Part shown: positions 8,874 to 18,353 of the stretch, in pieces
How the letters are laid out: each line of letters starts with the position of its first letter
How positions within the stretch are numbered: position 1 is the stretch's first letter
Assembly: GCF_029581395.1 (NCBI RefSeq)
Contig: NZ_CP121113.1
Span: 2,972,001 to 3,036,000, forward strand
Source: Roseinatronobacter sp. S2
GTDB lineage: Bacteria; Pseudomonadota; Alphaproteobacteria; Rhodobacterales; Rhodobacteraceae
DNA: 64,000 nucleotides
Reading direction: 5' to 3'
Made by a program: the position numbers and the translations under genes
The notes under the pieces: model-generated
Seen by the model: the letters and a program-made list of their open reading frames with translations, nothing else
What the model was told of the DNA's origin: nothing
The model's database searches: none

Positions 8874-9809
8874 TCACATTGGCGCGCAACGGACACGGGC
8901 GGCTGCAATCAAATCCTGCCCTGCAACGCACAGATGCGCGGCCAGATCGTCAAACCATGTCCCCCCATCCGATGATGCACGGCGCAACAGCGCGATTTGG
9001 CGGAACGGTTCGGGCTGGCCAAAGCGTTGCAGCACAATGCCCTGCCCGCCCGTCGCCTCGGCGCGCACCGCAAGTTCGGGCAGCAATGTCAGCCCGAACC
9101 CCTGCGCCACCAGCCCGCAAAGCGTGGACAGCGTGGATGCGCCCAGATCAAGCCGCGTCTGCCGCCGGTCAATTGCGCAAAAGGCAAGCGCCTGATCGGC
9201 CAGACAATGGCCATCATCCAACAGCAACAGATGATCGGGGTTCAGCGCGGTCGGGTCCAGCGCATGGTGCCCCTGATCCAGCGCGCCAAGGCGCCCTTCG
9301 GACCCCGCCAGCACGAACCGGTCCTGAAACAGGGGCGCTATGACCAGATCGGGCGCAGGCACAGGATCGGCCAGCACGACCGCATCCAGCCGCCCCGCGC
9401 GCAGCCCCGACAGCAGGTCACTGGTCTGCGCCTCGCGCAGGCGCAGATCGCGCGTAATGTCGCCCGCACGCAGCCGCGCAAGGGTTCCGGGCAACAGATA
9501 TGGTGCGATCGTGGGGATCATGCCCAGCGTCAGCGCAGCCTGCAACCCCTGCCGCCGTGCCGAGGTTTCCAGTTCCATCGTTTCGGACAGGATCCGTTCT
9601 GCACGCGCCAGAACATCGCGCCCCGCACGCGTCAGGCGCACATCACGCGGCAACCGTTCCACCAACGCCACGCCAAGAATACCTTCCAGTTCCTTGATCT
9701 GCATCGACAGGGCGGGCTGCGTGACATTCACAAGTTCCGCCGCGCGCCCGAAATTATGCGCCTGCGCAAGGGCACGGAAATAGGCAAGCTGTTTTAGGGT
9801 AACTTTCAT
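8874..9809 (-). CDS. oxyR: OxyR-type peroxide-sensing LysR regulator
   Basis: A 311-residue LysR-family transcription factor. The N-terminal winged helix-turn-helix covers about residues 1-60 (Leu-Ala-Tyr-Phe-Arg-Ala-Leu-Ala...Thr-Gln-Pro-Ala-Leu-Ser), and a periplasmic-binding-protein-like sensor domain follows. The sensor carries Cys202 and Cys211 in Asp-Asp-Gly-His-Cys-Leu-Ala-Asp-Gln-Ala-Leu-Ala-Phe-Cys, with the same 9-residue spacing as the redox pair Cys199/Cys208 of E. coli OxyR, so it should sense hydrogen peroxide by disulfide formation. No catalase, ahpC or other usual partner is adjacent: lipA lies downstream and a repeat element plus mfd lie upstream. The 63 nt before the ATG presumably hold its promoter. 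Confidence 0.93.
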   Translation of the reverse strand: MKVTLKQLAYFRALAQAHNFGRAAELVNVTQPALSMQIKELEGILGVALVERLPRDVRLTRAGRDVLARAERILSETMELETSARRQGLQAALTLGMIPTIAPYLLPGTLARLRAGDITRDLRLREAQTSDLLSGLRAGRLDAVVLADPVPAPDLVIAPLFQDRFVLAGSEGRLGALDQGHHALDPTALNPDHLLLLDDGHCLADQALAFCAIDRRQTRLDLGASTLSTLCGLVAQGFGLTLLPELAVRAEATGGQGIVLQRFGQPEPFRQIALLRRASSDGGTWFDDLAAHLCVAGQDLIAAARVRCAPM

Positions 9810-9872
9810 AAGGCAGTCTTATCAAAAACGCCCAAAGATTGCCAAGTGTTCTGATTGCCACACCACACTTTT

Positions 9873-10058
9873 CCTTATGGTGGTGTCATGCCAGATGGGA
9901 TCGTAGGGCGGGTTAATTCCGGCCTGAAGCAGTCGCCCAAGGCGCGGAATCAAGGGCGCAGCCCGCCGCGCCATCGGCGGGCCGTCCCGCGGCCTGCCGA
10001 TGGCGCGGGCTTTATCCAAGCGCGCACATCCCCGACAGGCCAGCACCACCCAACCGGA
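9873..10058 (-). repeat. Interspersed repeat element, copy A (3' of mfd)
   Basis: This 186-nt non-coding stretch matches 17548-17832, with long identical runs at both ends (for example AAGGGCGCAGCCCGCCGCGC and CAGCACCACCCAACCGGA). Copy A lacks the 99 nt present in the middle of copy B. It begins 15 nt after the mfd stop and ends 63 nt before the oxyR start. Positions 9966-10008 fold into a hairpin with 19 consecutive base pairs. I am sure of the repeat relationship; what the element does is unknown. Confidence 0.85.
9966..10008 (-). other. Perfect 19-bp hairpin inside repeat copy A
   Basis: Arm 9966-9984 pairs with 9990-10008 around the 5-nt loop TCCCG. All 19 pairs form, with one G-T wobble (9979:9995). 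No T-run follows on either strand, so it is not a standard intrinsic terminator. Confidence 0.85.
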
Positions 10059-10073
10059 TGCGCCTGCCACATT

Positions 10074-13000
10074 CTAGCCCTTCGCATCCGCCTTCACCGC
10101 CAGATCGCGCGCAATGGCAAAGGCCCCGCGCACGCGCTCTTTTTCAGTGCTCCAGTCGCGGCGCACGACAATCTTGTTGTCGCGCACCTTTGCCAGTCCC
10201 TGCTGGTCGTTCACGAATTCCACCAACCCCGCCGGATTGGCGAATTTGTCATTGTGGAACTGGATCGTCGCGCCCTTTGGCCCTGCGTCCAGTTTGGCGA
10301 TGCCCGCGCGTTTGCATTCGGCCTTGATGCGCATGACCACCAGAAGCGTGTTCACTTCGCGCGGCAACTTGCCAAACCGGTCAATCAGTTCGGCAGCGAA
10401 CCCTTCCAGATCGACCTTGTTGGTCAGCCCCGACAAGCGCCGATACAGCCCCAGCCGCACATCCAGATCGGGCACATAGTCATCCGGTATCAGCACCGGC
10501 ACGCCCAGATTGATTTGCGGTGCCCATTGCCCGTCCAGATCAGACACATCCGCAATCTCGCCCGAGCGTATCTTGGCAATCGTGTCTTCCAGCATCTGCT
10601 GATACAACTCGTAGCCCACTTCGTTGATATGGCCGGATTGTTCTTCGCCCAGAATATTGCCCGCGCCGCGCAGGTCCATGTCATGGCTGGCAAGGTTGAA
10701 CCCCGCCCCAAGGCTATCCAGACTGGCCAGCAGGCGCAAACGTTTCTGGGCCTGCGGGGTCAGGGGCGCGCGGGGTTTCGTGGTCAGGAAGCAATAGGCC
10801 CGCGTTTTGGCCCGCCCGACGCGCCCGCGTATCTGATACAGCTGCGACAACCCGAACATATCGGCGCGGTGCACGATCATCGTATTGGCGCGCGGAATAT
10901 CAAGGCCGGATTCAACAATGCTGGTCGCGACCAGAACATCATATTTGCCATCATAAAAGGCGTTCATCCGTTCATCCAGATCGCCCGCAGGCATCTGGCC
11001 GTTGGCGGTGACATAGGTGATTTCAGGCACCTGATTGCGCAGGAAATCCTCAACCTCGGGCAGGTCAGAGATGCGCGGCACCACAAAGAACGACTGCCCG
11101 CCGCGATAATGTTCGCGCAACAGCGCCTCGCGCAGGGTCACAGTGTCGAATTCGCTGACATAGGTGCGGATGGCCAGCCGGTCCACAGGCGGGGTCTGGA
11201 TGATGGACAGATCGCGCACCCCTGTCAGTGACAGCTGCAAGGTGCGCGGGATGGGCGTTGCGGTCAGTGTCAGCACATGAATATCGCTGCGCAATTCCTT
11301 CAGGCGTTCCTTGTGGGTCACCCCGAAATGCTGTTCTTCGTCAATGACCAGCAGGCCCAGATTGGCGAACTTCACACCCTTGGCCAGCAGCGCATGAGTG
11401 CCGATGCAAATATCGACTGTGCCCTTGGTCAGCCCGTCGCGGGTGGCGCTGGCATCCTTGGCGGACACGAAACGCGACAGCGGCCGGACTACGACCGGCA
11501 GACCACGGAAGCGTTCCGAAAATGTCTTGAAATGCTGGCGCGCCAGCAGCGTGGTCGGTGCGATGACAGCCACCTGCACCCCTGACATGGCCGCAATGAA
11601 GGCCGCGCGCATGGCGACTTCGGTTTTGCCGAACCCCACATCGCCCACCACCAGCCGGTCCATGGGGCGTCCGGACTCAAAATCATCCAGCACATCTTCG
11701 ATGGCGCGCAACTGGTCATCGGTTTCGGCATAGGGGAAGCGGGCCAGAAATTCGTCCCACATCCCTTCGGGCGGGCTGAACTGTGGCGCGCTGCGCAACT
11801 GGCGTTCGGCCGCAATGCGGATCAGCTTGTCTGCAATCTCGCGGATGCGCTGTTTCAGCCGCGCTTTCTTGGCCTGCCATGCGCCGCCGCCCAGCTTGTC
11901 CAGCAACCCTTCTTCATGGCCATAGCGCGACAGAAGTTCGATATTTTCCACCGGCAGGAACAACCGGTCCCCGCCTGCATATTCCAGCGCAATGCATTCA
12001 TGCGGCGCGCCCATTGCCGTGATCGTCTCTAACCCCGTATAGCGGCCCACCCCATGATCGACATGCACGATCAGATCGCCCGGCGACAGGCTTTGCGCTT
12101 CGGTCAGAAAGTTTTCTGCCCGCTTGCGCCGTTTGGCCCGCCCGACCAGCCGTTCGCCCAACACATCCTGTTCGGAAATCACGGTCAGGTCCGGCGTCTG
12201 AAAGCCCTGATCCAACGGCCAGACAGTCAGGAACAAACGCCCCTTTGGGCCTGTGCCCATATCGCGCGCCGTGGTGATATTCTGCGCGCCCTTTGCACCG
12301 TGATCGTCCAGCAAGCCCGACAGCCGTTCGCGCGCCCCGTCCGAATGACTGGCAATCACCACATCACCATGCGCGCGCCGGTCATTGACGTGGGCTGCCA
12401 GCGCATCGAACACATTGGCTTCGGCCTGCCGTTCGGGGGCAAAGCTGCGCCCCATGCGCCCGCCTGCATCCAGAACCCCCGGCCCCGGTGCGGTTTTCGA
12501 CGGCTGCAACTGGATAACCCGCCTGCCGGACAGGGCCTGCATCCATGCCGCTTCATTCAGATACAGCTGTTCAGGGGGGCAAGGCTTATAGATTGTGTCC
12601 AAACGCTTGCGGTCTGCCATTGCCTCGCGCCGGGCATCATACTGGTCGGCGATCCCGTCCCAGCGCGAAATGCGCGCGGCCACGATCTGGTCGTCCAGCA
12701 TGACGGACGCATCTGGCAGGTAGTCAAACAGCGTTTCCATGCGGGCGTGAAAGAAGGGCAGCCAATGCTCCATCCCCTGATGTTTGCGCCCTGCGCTGAC
12801 GGCTTCATAAAGCGGGTCGTCACTGCCTGCTGCGCCAAATTCGATGCGGTAATTCTGCCGGAACCGCGTGATCGCGGCGTCATCCAGAATGATCTCGGAC
12901 ACGGGGGCGAATTCCACCACATCCAGCTTTTCCAGACTGCGCTGGGTGGCCGGATCAAAACGGCGCGCGGCGTCCAGCACATCACCAAACATATCCAGCC

Positions 13001-17547: not shown

Positions 17548-17832
17548 CCTTATGGCGGGGTCATGGCAGTTGGAACCGCAAGGCTGGTTAATGCTGGCCT
17601 GAAGCTGACACCCCAAGGCGCGGAGCAAAGGGCGCAGCCCGCCGCGCCATAGGTCTGGCCGTCCCGCGGCCTGCCGATTACTCTGATGACAGTCCAAGCC
17701 TTTGATCTTGGGAGTATGCAGCCTGCATAAACTGCATTCTTATAATGTCGGATCGGCAGTCCCCGGCCCACCGCTGGCGCGGGCTATGTCCAAACACAAA
17801 CGTCTCCGTCACGCCAGCACCACCCAACCGGA
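17548..17832 (-). repeat. Interspersed repeat element, copy B (3' of coaD, with 99-nt insert)
   Basis: Second copy of the element at 9873-10058. Its outer parts align with copy A from CCTTATGG to CACCACCCAACCGGA. About 99 nt not present in copy A sit after CTGCCGAT (17671-17678), and the far side of the insert carries ATCGGCAG (17752-17759), the reverse complement of that flank. The insert also holds a small hairpin, ATGCA-GCC-TGCAT (17716-17728). The element starts 26 nt after the coaD stop. With 17426-17547 it fills the 433-nt gap before coaD; I see no gene there. Confidence 0.85.
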
Positions 17833-17858
17833 CGTTTTCACCTGATCTGACCCACCCT

Positions 17859-18353
17859 CTAGCGCGGGTATTTCGCACCCAGCGCTTCGGTAATGGCCGG
17901 GGACACAAAATTCGACACATCGCCACCCAGCCGCGCGATTTCCTTGACCAGTTTGGATGCGATCGCCTGATGGCGGGCTTCTGCCATAAGAAATACCGTT
18001 TCGATACTGGCATCCATGGCGCGGTTCATGCCGACCATCTGGAATTCATATTCGAAATCGGTGACCGCGCGCAGGCCGCGTATGATGATCTGCGCGCCCA
18101 CGTCGCGCGCGCAATCAATCAGCAGGTTCTCGAACGGGTGGGCGATAATCTCGACCCCGGTGTGCACACTCAGCGTCTGCACCTCGGCCTCGATCATGGC
18201 GACACGTTCTTCCAGCGTGAATAGCGGGCCTTTGTCGCGGTTTATCGCAACGCCGATCACCAGGCGGTCCACAAGCTGCGTCGCGCGGGTGATAATATCG
18301 ATATGCCCCTTGGTCAAAGGGTCAAAAGTTCCTGGATAAAGACCGATCCGCAT
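17859..18353 (-). CDS. coaD: Pantetheine-phosphate adenylyltransferase
   Basis: Fourth step of coenzyme A synthesis: transfers AMP from ATP to 4'-phosphopantetheine. The 164-residue length is typical. The nucleotidyltransferase signature Gly-Thr-Phe-Asp-Pro-Leu-Thr-Lys-Gly-His lies at residues 8-17, and the C-terminal half has Gly-Leu-Arg-Ala-Val-Thr-Asp-Phe-Glu-Tyr-Glu and Val-Ser-Asn-Phe-Val-Ser-Pro. It is transcribed leftward into repeat copy B, with the CBS-domain gene 79 nt upstream on the same strand. coaX, for the first step of the same pathway, is also in this window at 51.4 kb. Confidence 0.97.
   Translation of the reverse strand: MRIGLYPGTFDPLTKGHIDIITRATQLVDRLVIGVAINRDKGPLFTLEERVAMIEAEVQTLSVHTGVEIIAHPFENLLIDCARDVGAQIIIRGLRAVTDFEYEFQMVGMNRAMDASIETVFLMAEARHQAIASKLVKEIARLGGDVSNFVSPAITEALGAKYPR

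What the first reader, a model, noticed from the sequence alone, without database searches (positions are those of the whole stretch)
9873..10058. Two-copy interspersed element parked at the 3' ends of mfd and coaD
Seen: 9873-10058 and 17548-17832 align over their full outer parts with long identical runs, share orientation, and both begin shortly after the stop of a leftward gene (15 nt after mfd, 26 nt after coaD). Both occupy the 3' untranslated side and neither contains a plausible gene with a ribosome-binding site. Inference: this is a dispersed family element (mobile palindromic repeat, 3'-UTR-derived sRNA or mRNA-stability element) that inserts or is tolerated just past stop codons. In both copies the plus-strand words Pro-Tyr-Gly-Gly-Val-Met and Val-Asn-x-Gly-Leu-Lys can be read in frame, with two of the differences at synonymous positions, so a degraded coding origin is possible.
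Basis: partly seen in the sequence, partly recalled or inferred. Interest (0 to 1): 0.75.

Follow-up and report, generated by a model that had tools for sequence, protein, structure and literature searches.

The report
Hairpin repeat between converging gene ends
The two matching stretches belong to a large family of folded, non-coding DNA repeats that sits mostly where two genes end facing each other, and comparison with relatives suggests that the repeat at a given spot is often overwritten by another copy, in either orientation.

Summary
Copies 1 (9874-10077) and 2 (17549-17862) belong to a dispersed family; I read 103 copies in this genome. A ~169-nt core of nested hairpins recurs across Rhodobacteraceae (86 of 198 sampled genomes) with compensatory base changes. 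It reached no Rfam threshold and appears in no paper listed by my eight searches.

In this genome 82 of 103 copies lie between convergent genes (control 96 of 712 gene pairs); 7 of 9 plasmid sites with database annotation agree. Outer arms can carry the neighbouring gene's TAG stop, as at mfd and coaD.

At 31 occupied orthologous sites in a near relative the core is inverted at 15. No inverted core has the resident copy as its best whole-core match. Where alignment is clean, the break lies at short terminal inverted repeats that stay in place. So sites persist while occupants seem to be overwritten by other copies in either orientation. That pattern is shown, though the relative is probably a metagenome bin; the mechanism is inferred.

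RAYT-type REP membership fails, a decayed-gene origin is not supported, and simple in-place flipping fits poorly. It is MITE-like/REP-like with unusual turnover. Transcription and 3'-end function are untested.

The parts
9874..10077 (.). Copy 1, whole element (short form), including the mfd stop codon
9874..9920 (+). Copy 1 outer arm X
   Evidence: score 58 against arm X; 99th percentile of flank controls 21; coordinates
9920..9924 (+). Copy 1 left terminal repeat (CGGCC, family form TGGCC)
9942..9971 (+). Copy 1 hairpin 1
9973..10001 (+). Copy 1 hairpin 2; in this short form extended to a 17-bp stem over 9968-10006
10001..10002 (.). Deletion junction: about 98 nt of loop and distal strand present in copy 2 are missing here
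10038..10042 (+). Copy 1 right terminal repeat GGCCA
10042..10077 (+). Copy 1 outer arm Y, ending CTAG with the mfd stop (10074-10076, minus strand)
17549..17862 (.). Copy 2, whole element (long form), including the coaD stop codon
17549..17594 (+). Copy 2 outer arm X
   Evidence: score 74
17595..17599 (+). Copy 2 left terminal repeat TGGCC
17618..17783 (+). Copy 2 core: hairpin 1 (17618-17647), hairpin 2 (17649-17678), loop, distal strand (17751-17783)
17764..17780 (+). Copy 2 distal strand of the long-range stem, partner of hairpin 1/2 sequence
17812..17816 (+). Copy 2 right terminal repeat (CGCCA, family form GGCCA)
17816..17862 (+). Copy 2 outer arm Y, ending CTAG with the coaD stop (17859-17861, minus strand)

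Best explanation
This is a non-coding, MITE-like structured repeat family of Rhodobacteraceae. SHOWN: a ~169-nt core with two local hairpins and a mutually exclusive long-range stem, over 100 copies in this genome, intergenic and concentrated where two genes converge. SHOWN in this clade: closely similar copies often share a unit of about 231 nt running from TGGCC to GGCCA, and a part of the copies sits between outer arms X and Y that can carry the neighbour's TAG stop. SHOWN by comparison with relatives: many sites are shared while the resident core is often a different copy, in either orientation, with the terminal repeats left in place. INFERRED: replacement is ectopic and templated. A break or stalled fork in the hairpin-rich core is repaired from another copy using the short terminal inverted repeats as homology; since they are inverted repeats, the donor can enter either way round. 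INFERRED: the element is mainly selfish or neutral and survives at convergent ends because little there depends on sequence or strand; an orientation-blind 3'-end structure may help to keep it.
For: Copies and architecture. Compensatory changes in both pairings. Convergent context: 82 of 103 own copies against 96 of 712 control pairs; 27 of 36 in G012 and 24 of 38 in G018 stretches; 74 of 129 copies from other genomes; 7 of 9 annotated plasmid places. Unit edges at (T)GGCC in 8 and at GGCCA in 9 of 15 closest own pairs. Core in either orientation between arms: 9 X-core-Y, 14 Y-core-X, 1 Y-Y. Orthologous sites: G012 29 of 30 with a core, 15 same, 14 inverted; best match is the resident copy in 8 of 14 scorable same-orientation cores and in 0 of 14 inverted ones, Fisher p 0.0019. 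Breaks at the inner edge of the terminal repeats in the cleanly aligned inverted pairs. G018: 9 inverted, 3 same of 12 occupied sites; none of the 11 scored has the resident as best match.
Against: The enzyme or pathway is unknown; no recombination test exists. G012 is probably a metagenome bin. By the loop alone one inverted site (L098) has the resident tied first at 0.87, and at a 0.93 cut the contrast is only 5 of 14 against 0 of 14, p 0.041. 6 of 15 closest pairs do not end at GGCCA and 7 do not start at GGCC; exact TGGCC and GGCCA are both present in only 30 of 96 long copies. RecA-type conversion would be expected to favour same-orientation donors, yet replaced cores are more often inverted (14 of 20 in G012, 9 of 12 in G018). 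In the two donor cases followed up, duplicative copying was only suggested in one. 16 of 28 G018 sites lack a core.
Confidence: 0.5

Rival explanations
1. Ordinary MITE transposition with strict target choice: a transposase acting in trans inserts the TGGCC...GGCCA unit at palindromic sites in either orientation; old units are lost by excision or by tandem insertion and deletion, and the same site is refilled.
For: Unit edges at an inverted TGGCC/GGCCA pair; solo or deleted remnants exist (L131; L052 in G012; L422); tandem direct copies 234-376 bp apart in G127 (places); copy number per species ranges from none detected to many.
Against: No transposase gene with these ends was found, though none was searched for except Y1. 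None of the 30 G012 sites was plainly empty (stretches were partly chosen around copies). The empty G018 sites I printed show no TGGCCA at the junction (7 printed).
Confidence: 0.27
2. A selected 3'-end RNA or DNA device (bidirectional attenuator, mRNA 3'-end protector, supercoil or protein site) that works in either orientation; turnover is incidental.
For: Compensatory base changes; both strands fold better than shuffles on average, mean z -2.95 and -2.76 over 21 sequences; convergent position; sites shared with G018 at 12 of 28.
Against: Terminator-like signals are no rarer beside the element, 6 of 29 against 14 of 45, p 0.42. 112 of 198 family genomes gave no match and 10 of 24 genus genomes gave none, so it is dispensable. 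No expression data.
Confidence: 0.12
3. Simple inversion in place, as reported for Correia elements, plus independent gene conversion among copies.
For: Terminal inverted repeats; inverted occupants at half of the G012 sites; inversion of Correia elements is on record (PMC10969869, passage).
Against: If independent, inverted cores should keep the resident sequence as often as the others: 0 of 14 against 8 of 14.
Confidence: 0.06
4. The swapping is an artefact of metagenome assembly of G012.
For: Contig lengths of G012 equal those of a MAG, JAFIEO.
Against: G018, whose contig lengths equal those of Roseinatronobacter sp. HJB301, also shows 9 inverted of 12 occupied sites. Eight G012 cores are best matched by the resident own copy. 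Own copies already stand both ways between the same arms.
Confidence: 0.04
5. REP elements moved by a RAYT (Y1) transposase.
For: Extragenic palindromes, often between convergent genes, as REPs are reported to be (PMC1525189, passages).
Against: No Y1_Tnp over cut-off in G000, G012, G018, G007, G010, G019, G020 or G021; the one genome with a full hit, G001, has no copy.
Confidence: 0.01

Closest known systems
REP / BIME elements (RAYT-associated)
   Same: Extragenic palindromes in many copies, frequent between convergent genes (PMC1525189, passages only)
   Different: Unit of about 231 nt with a 169-nt two-state core; no Y1 transposase in copy-rich genomes
[quoted passage not shown]
   Same: Short, no gene of its own seen, terminal inverted repeats, dispersed (definition from passages of PMC10969869)
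   Different: No parent IS known, no target duplication shown, occupants exchanged at kept sites
Correia elements of Neisseria
   Same: Either orientation possible; inversion reported (PMC10969869, passage). Arm X often begins CTATAG and Correia ends begin TATAG (recalled, a lead only)
   Different: Here the inverted occupant is a different copy; Correia elements are described there as mainly upstream of genes, these lie at 3' ends
Bidirectional intrinsic terminators
   Same: Hairpins between convergent genes
   Different: No T-run after the core hairpins in the consensus; terminator-like signals equally common with and without the element

Membership tests
REP/RAYT | Y1 (RAYT) transposase gene in the genome | tested here: not met
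   one of 24 genus genomes over cut-off (G001), and it has no copy; G000 has only a 30-position match below cut-off in a 77-aa frame
REP/RAYT | Short unit of some 20-40 nt (recalled) | tested here: not met
   unit about 231 nt, core about 169 nt
REP/RAYT | Conserved GTAG-type tetranucleotide at the foot of the hairpin (recalled) | not tested
   no scan made
MITE | Terminal inverted repeats | tested here: met
   TGGCC / GGCCA edges, both exact in 30 of 96 long copies
MITE | Target site duplication | tested here: inconclusive
   GGCC on both sides could be element ends or a duplication; 7 empty G018 sites printed do not settle it
MITE | Related autonomous IS with the same ends | not tested
   no transposase search except Y1
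Correia element | In-place inversion of the same copy | tested here: not met
   0 of 14 inverted G012 cores have the resident as best whole-core match; by loop alone one tie
Known RNA family (Rfam 15) | Match at gathering score | tested here: not met
   no match in the window or in 10 loci from several genomes
Intrinsic terminator | GC hairpin followed by a T-run | tested here: not met
   no T-run after hairpin 1 or 2 in the consensus

The most novel reading that the evidence does not exclude
The genome keeps inherited docking sites at converging gene ends into which a two-state folded cassette is copied again and again from other sites, in either orientation, overwriting the resident through short inverted ends. 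Such a family would spread by replacement rather than by new insertion, possibly through a single-stranded intermediate.
Probability: 0.3. Interest if true: 0.75.

Novelty: new variant of a known kind. Interest (0 to 1): 0.6.

Why it matters
If right, this is an apparently undescribed structured repeat family found in close to half of the sampled genera of a major bacterial family. It gives a clean system for two questions: why palindromic repeats collect between converging genes, and how copies of a repeat overwrite one another at fixed sites. It also warns that a repeat at an orthologous intergenic site need not be orthologous.

Tried and rejected
Rfam at gathering score and lax E-value: nothing near a gathering score. 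Phage records: no match. Y1 transposase: not in copy-rich genomes. A shared genomic position for genomes with one copy: flanking proteins of a few loci read by eye, no common neighbour seen (no family search run). Empty docking sites by pattern: four loci printed, one candidate remnant between convergent genes (L422), one inside a gene (L421), one a variant (L426), one an intact end (L420). Copy 2 with arms folded as single-stranded DNA: not better than shuffles (z -1.17, 15 of 100), unlike copy 1 (z -3.59, 0 of 200). Fewer terminators beside the element: no difference. Matching arm types at the two ends: weak (p 0.064). TAG stops beside recognised arms: 26 of 68 against 30 of 115 at ends without an arm, p 0.098; the p of 0.0004 compares with a set that is not independent, so I do not lean on it. 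Duplicative copying in two donor cases: suggestive in one only. The anchor pattern at up to 3 mismatches is noisy (117 places against 100 for the control), so I rely on the listed exact and one-mismatch places. Paper searches: no listed title or abstract start describes this family; I saw listings, plus passages of PMC1525189 and PMC10969869, and read no paper whole.

Full report
OBSERVATION. The two stretches are copies of one element (84% over query 1-129, 81% over 108-186). Reading them beside 103 own copies (part of the print was cut) gives this order in the long form: outer arm X, terminal repeat TGGCC, left flank, core (hairpin 1, hairpin 2, loop, distal strand), right flank, terminal repeat GGCCA, outer arm Y. 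In 96 of 103 copies the distal end was recognised, always 106-109 nt after the hairpin-2 anchor; the other 7 include short or degenerate forms. Copy 1 is a short form; its ortholog in G012 is long.

BOUNDARIES. Of the 15 closest own pairs (above 93% identity of the core), likeness starts at (T)GGCC on the left in 8 and ends at GGCCA, give or take a few bases, on the right in 9; most of the rest stop earlier, L088/L099 runs on into both arms and L026/L086 into the left flank. The common unit is about 231 nt. Exact TGGCC and GGCCA are both present in 30 of 96 long copies, one of them in 40, neither in 26. Arms X and Y lie outside. Of 103 copies, 9 are X-core-Y, 14 Y-core-X, 1 Y-core-Y (weak), 28 show one arm and 51 none. 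Nine of 34 recognised Y arms start exactly 4 nt before the end of the gene, eight of them as C-TAG with TAG the stop codon, coaD included. For mfd the script's extrapolated arm start differs, but the sequence shows the same CTAG.

STRUCTURE. An alignment of 21 diverse sequences supports two mutually exclusive pairings. Hairpins 1 and 2: 97.6% of cells paired, 5 pairs with changes on both sides. Inner stem of hairpin 1 plus long-range stems: 93.5%, 11 such pairs. No shuffle of 500 reached the observed values, except 1 of 500 on one measure; partners slid by 1-3 columns pair at most 45.5% and 50.7%. These counts are of sequences, not independent events, and the outer stem of hairpin 1 never varies and so says nothing. 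As RNA, both strands of the 21 fold better than shuffles on average (mean z -2.95 and -2.76; single values from -0.1 to -6.0).

DISTRIBUTION. A DNA query matched 14 of 24 same-genus genomes (own included) and 0 of 16 others. A covariance model matched 86 of 198 family genomes, 85 of 197 genera, and 4 of 289 genomes drawn from the class, all four in this family, own included. Both model searches used strict filters and scored few candidates per genome, so absences are soft and copy numbers capped. Plasmid matches are Salipiger and Pseudosulfitobacter.

CONTEXT. A simple codon-usage gene finder trained on the window puts 82 of 103 own copies between convergent genes, 19 between tandem genes, 1 divergent, 1 overlapping. 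Control gene pairs from the window and G012 stretches: 96 convergent of 712, or 45 of 209 with at least 150 bp between; since about half of the control stretches were chosen around copies, the control is if anything too convergent. G012 copies: 27 of 36 classed (38 found); G018: 24 of 38. Of 129 copies from other genomes, some of the same genus, 74 convergent, 42 tandem, 7 divergent, 5 overlapping, 1 at an edge. Nine plasmid places with shipped annotation, which is incomplete by design: seven convergent, two tandem.

TURNOVER. For 30 own copies the orthologous G012 site was found; flanks are mostly 93-98% identical, lower in four sites (down to 84%). 29 hold a core, 15 in the same orientation and 14 inverted; the thirtieth (L052) is a deletion remnant. 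Of the same-orientation sites 14 could be scored: in 8 the resident own copy is the best match, in 6 it is not (rank 3-50). In the 14 inverted sites it never is (identity 0.82-0.91, rank 8-75). The loop alone agrees (Mann-Whitney p 0.0005), with L051 falling to rank 3 and inverted L098 tied first at 0.87; at a 0.93 cut it is 5 of 14 against 0 of 14. Two more sites looked up on purpose gave one same (0.954, rank 2) and one inverted (0.840, rank 45), hence 31 occupied sites, 15 inverted. In cleanly aligned inverted pairs the break lies at the inner edge of the terminal repeats; several alignments ran on into the core and do not locate it. Against G018, 28 sites: 12 with a core (3 same, 9 inverted; one, L058, at the threshold; 11 scored, resident rank 6-94) and 16 without, of which L065 holds a decayed remnant. 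A further site, L026, is occupied in G018 in the same orientation. The 19 first G012 stretches and the first 20 of 60 G018 stretches were chosen to include copies or mfd/coaD, so occupancy is biased upward; orientation should not be. The seven G012 sites from the other 20 stretches are six with a core and one remnant.

INTERPRETATION. Flip and replacement go together, so plain inversion does not explain them; a donor copied in through short inverted ends, which can align either way, does. I hold this at about even odds overall, ahead of transposition into reused sites. A 3'-end function is possible and would be blind to orientation, but nothing here tests it. REP elements are also reported to be frequent between convergent genes (PMC1525189, passages), which suits tolerance as well as function.

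Noticed in passing
L079, L096 (right flank), L042, L422: A second repeat, AGAGCRTGTTGCTCAAAAGTGGGAACCGGTTTTGAGC..., lies next to some copies between the same convergent genes; it resembles repeats recalled from Rhizobiales.
   Followed up: no
L205 (G000:C1:1354000-1368000), cores at 2796, 4810, 7516, 10913: Four copies within about 8 kb, alternating in orientation.
   Followed up: partly
G127 C3, C5 and C13: Pairs of direct copies 234-376 bp apart, as if in tandem.
   Followed up: no
L117 (G014) 1498-1662: A strongly diverged member in which hairpin 2 and the long-range stem are re-paired with other bases.
   Followed up: partly
L190 (G010), L187 (G015), L192 (G019): Family members also lie just downstream of coaD, or past the next gene, in more distant species of the genus.
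   Followed up: partly
G000:C3:467752-467882 (L131): Arms X and Y with only a short core remnant between them.
   Followed up: partly
window 9809-9874: Copy 1 ends 64 nt upstream of the start of a leftward gene (8874-9809), so it may touch that gene's promoter region.
   Followed up: no
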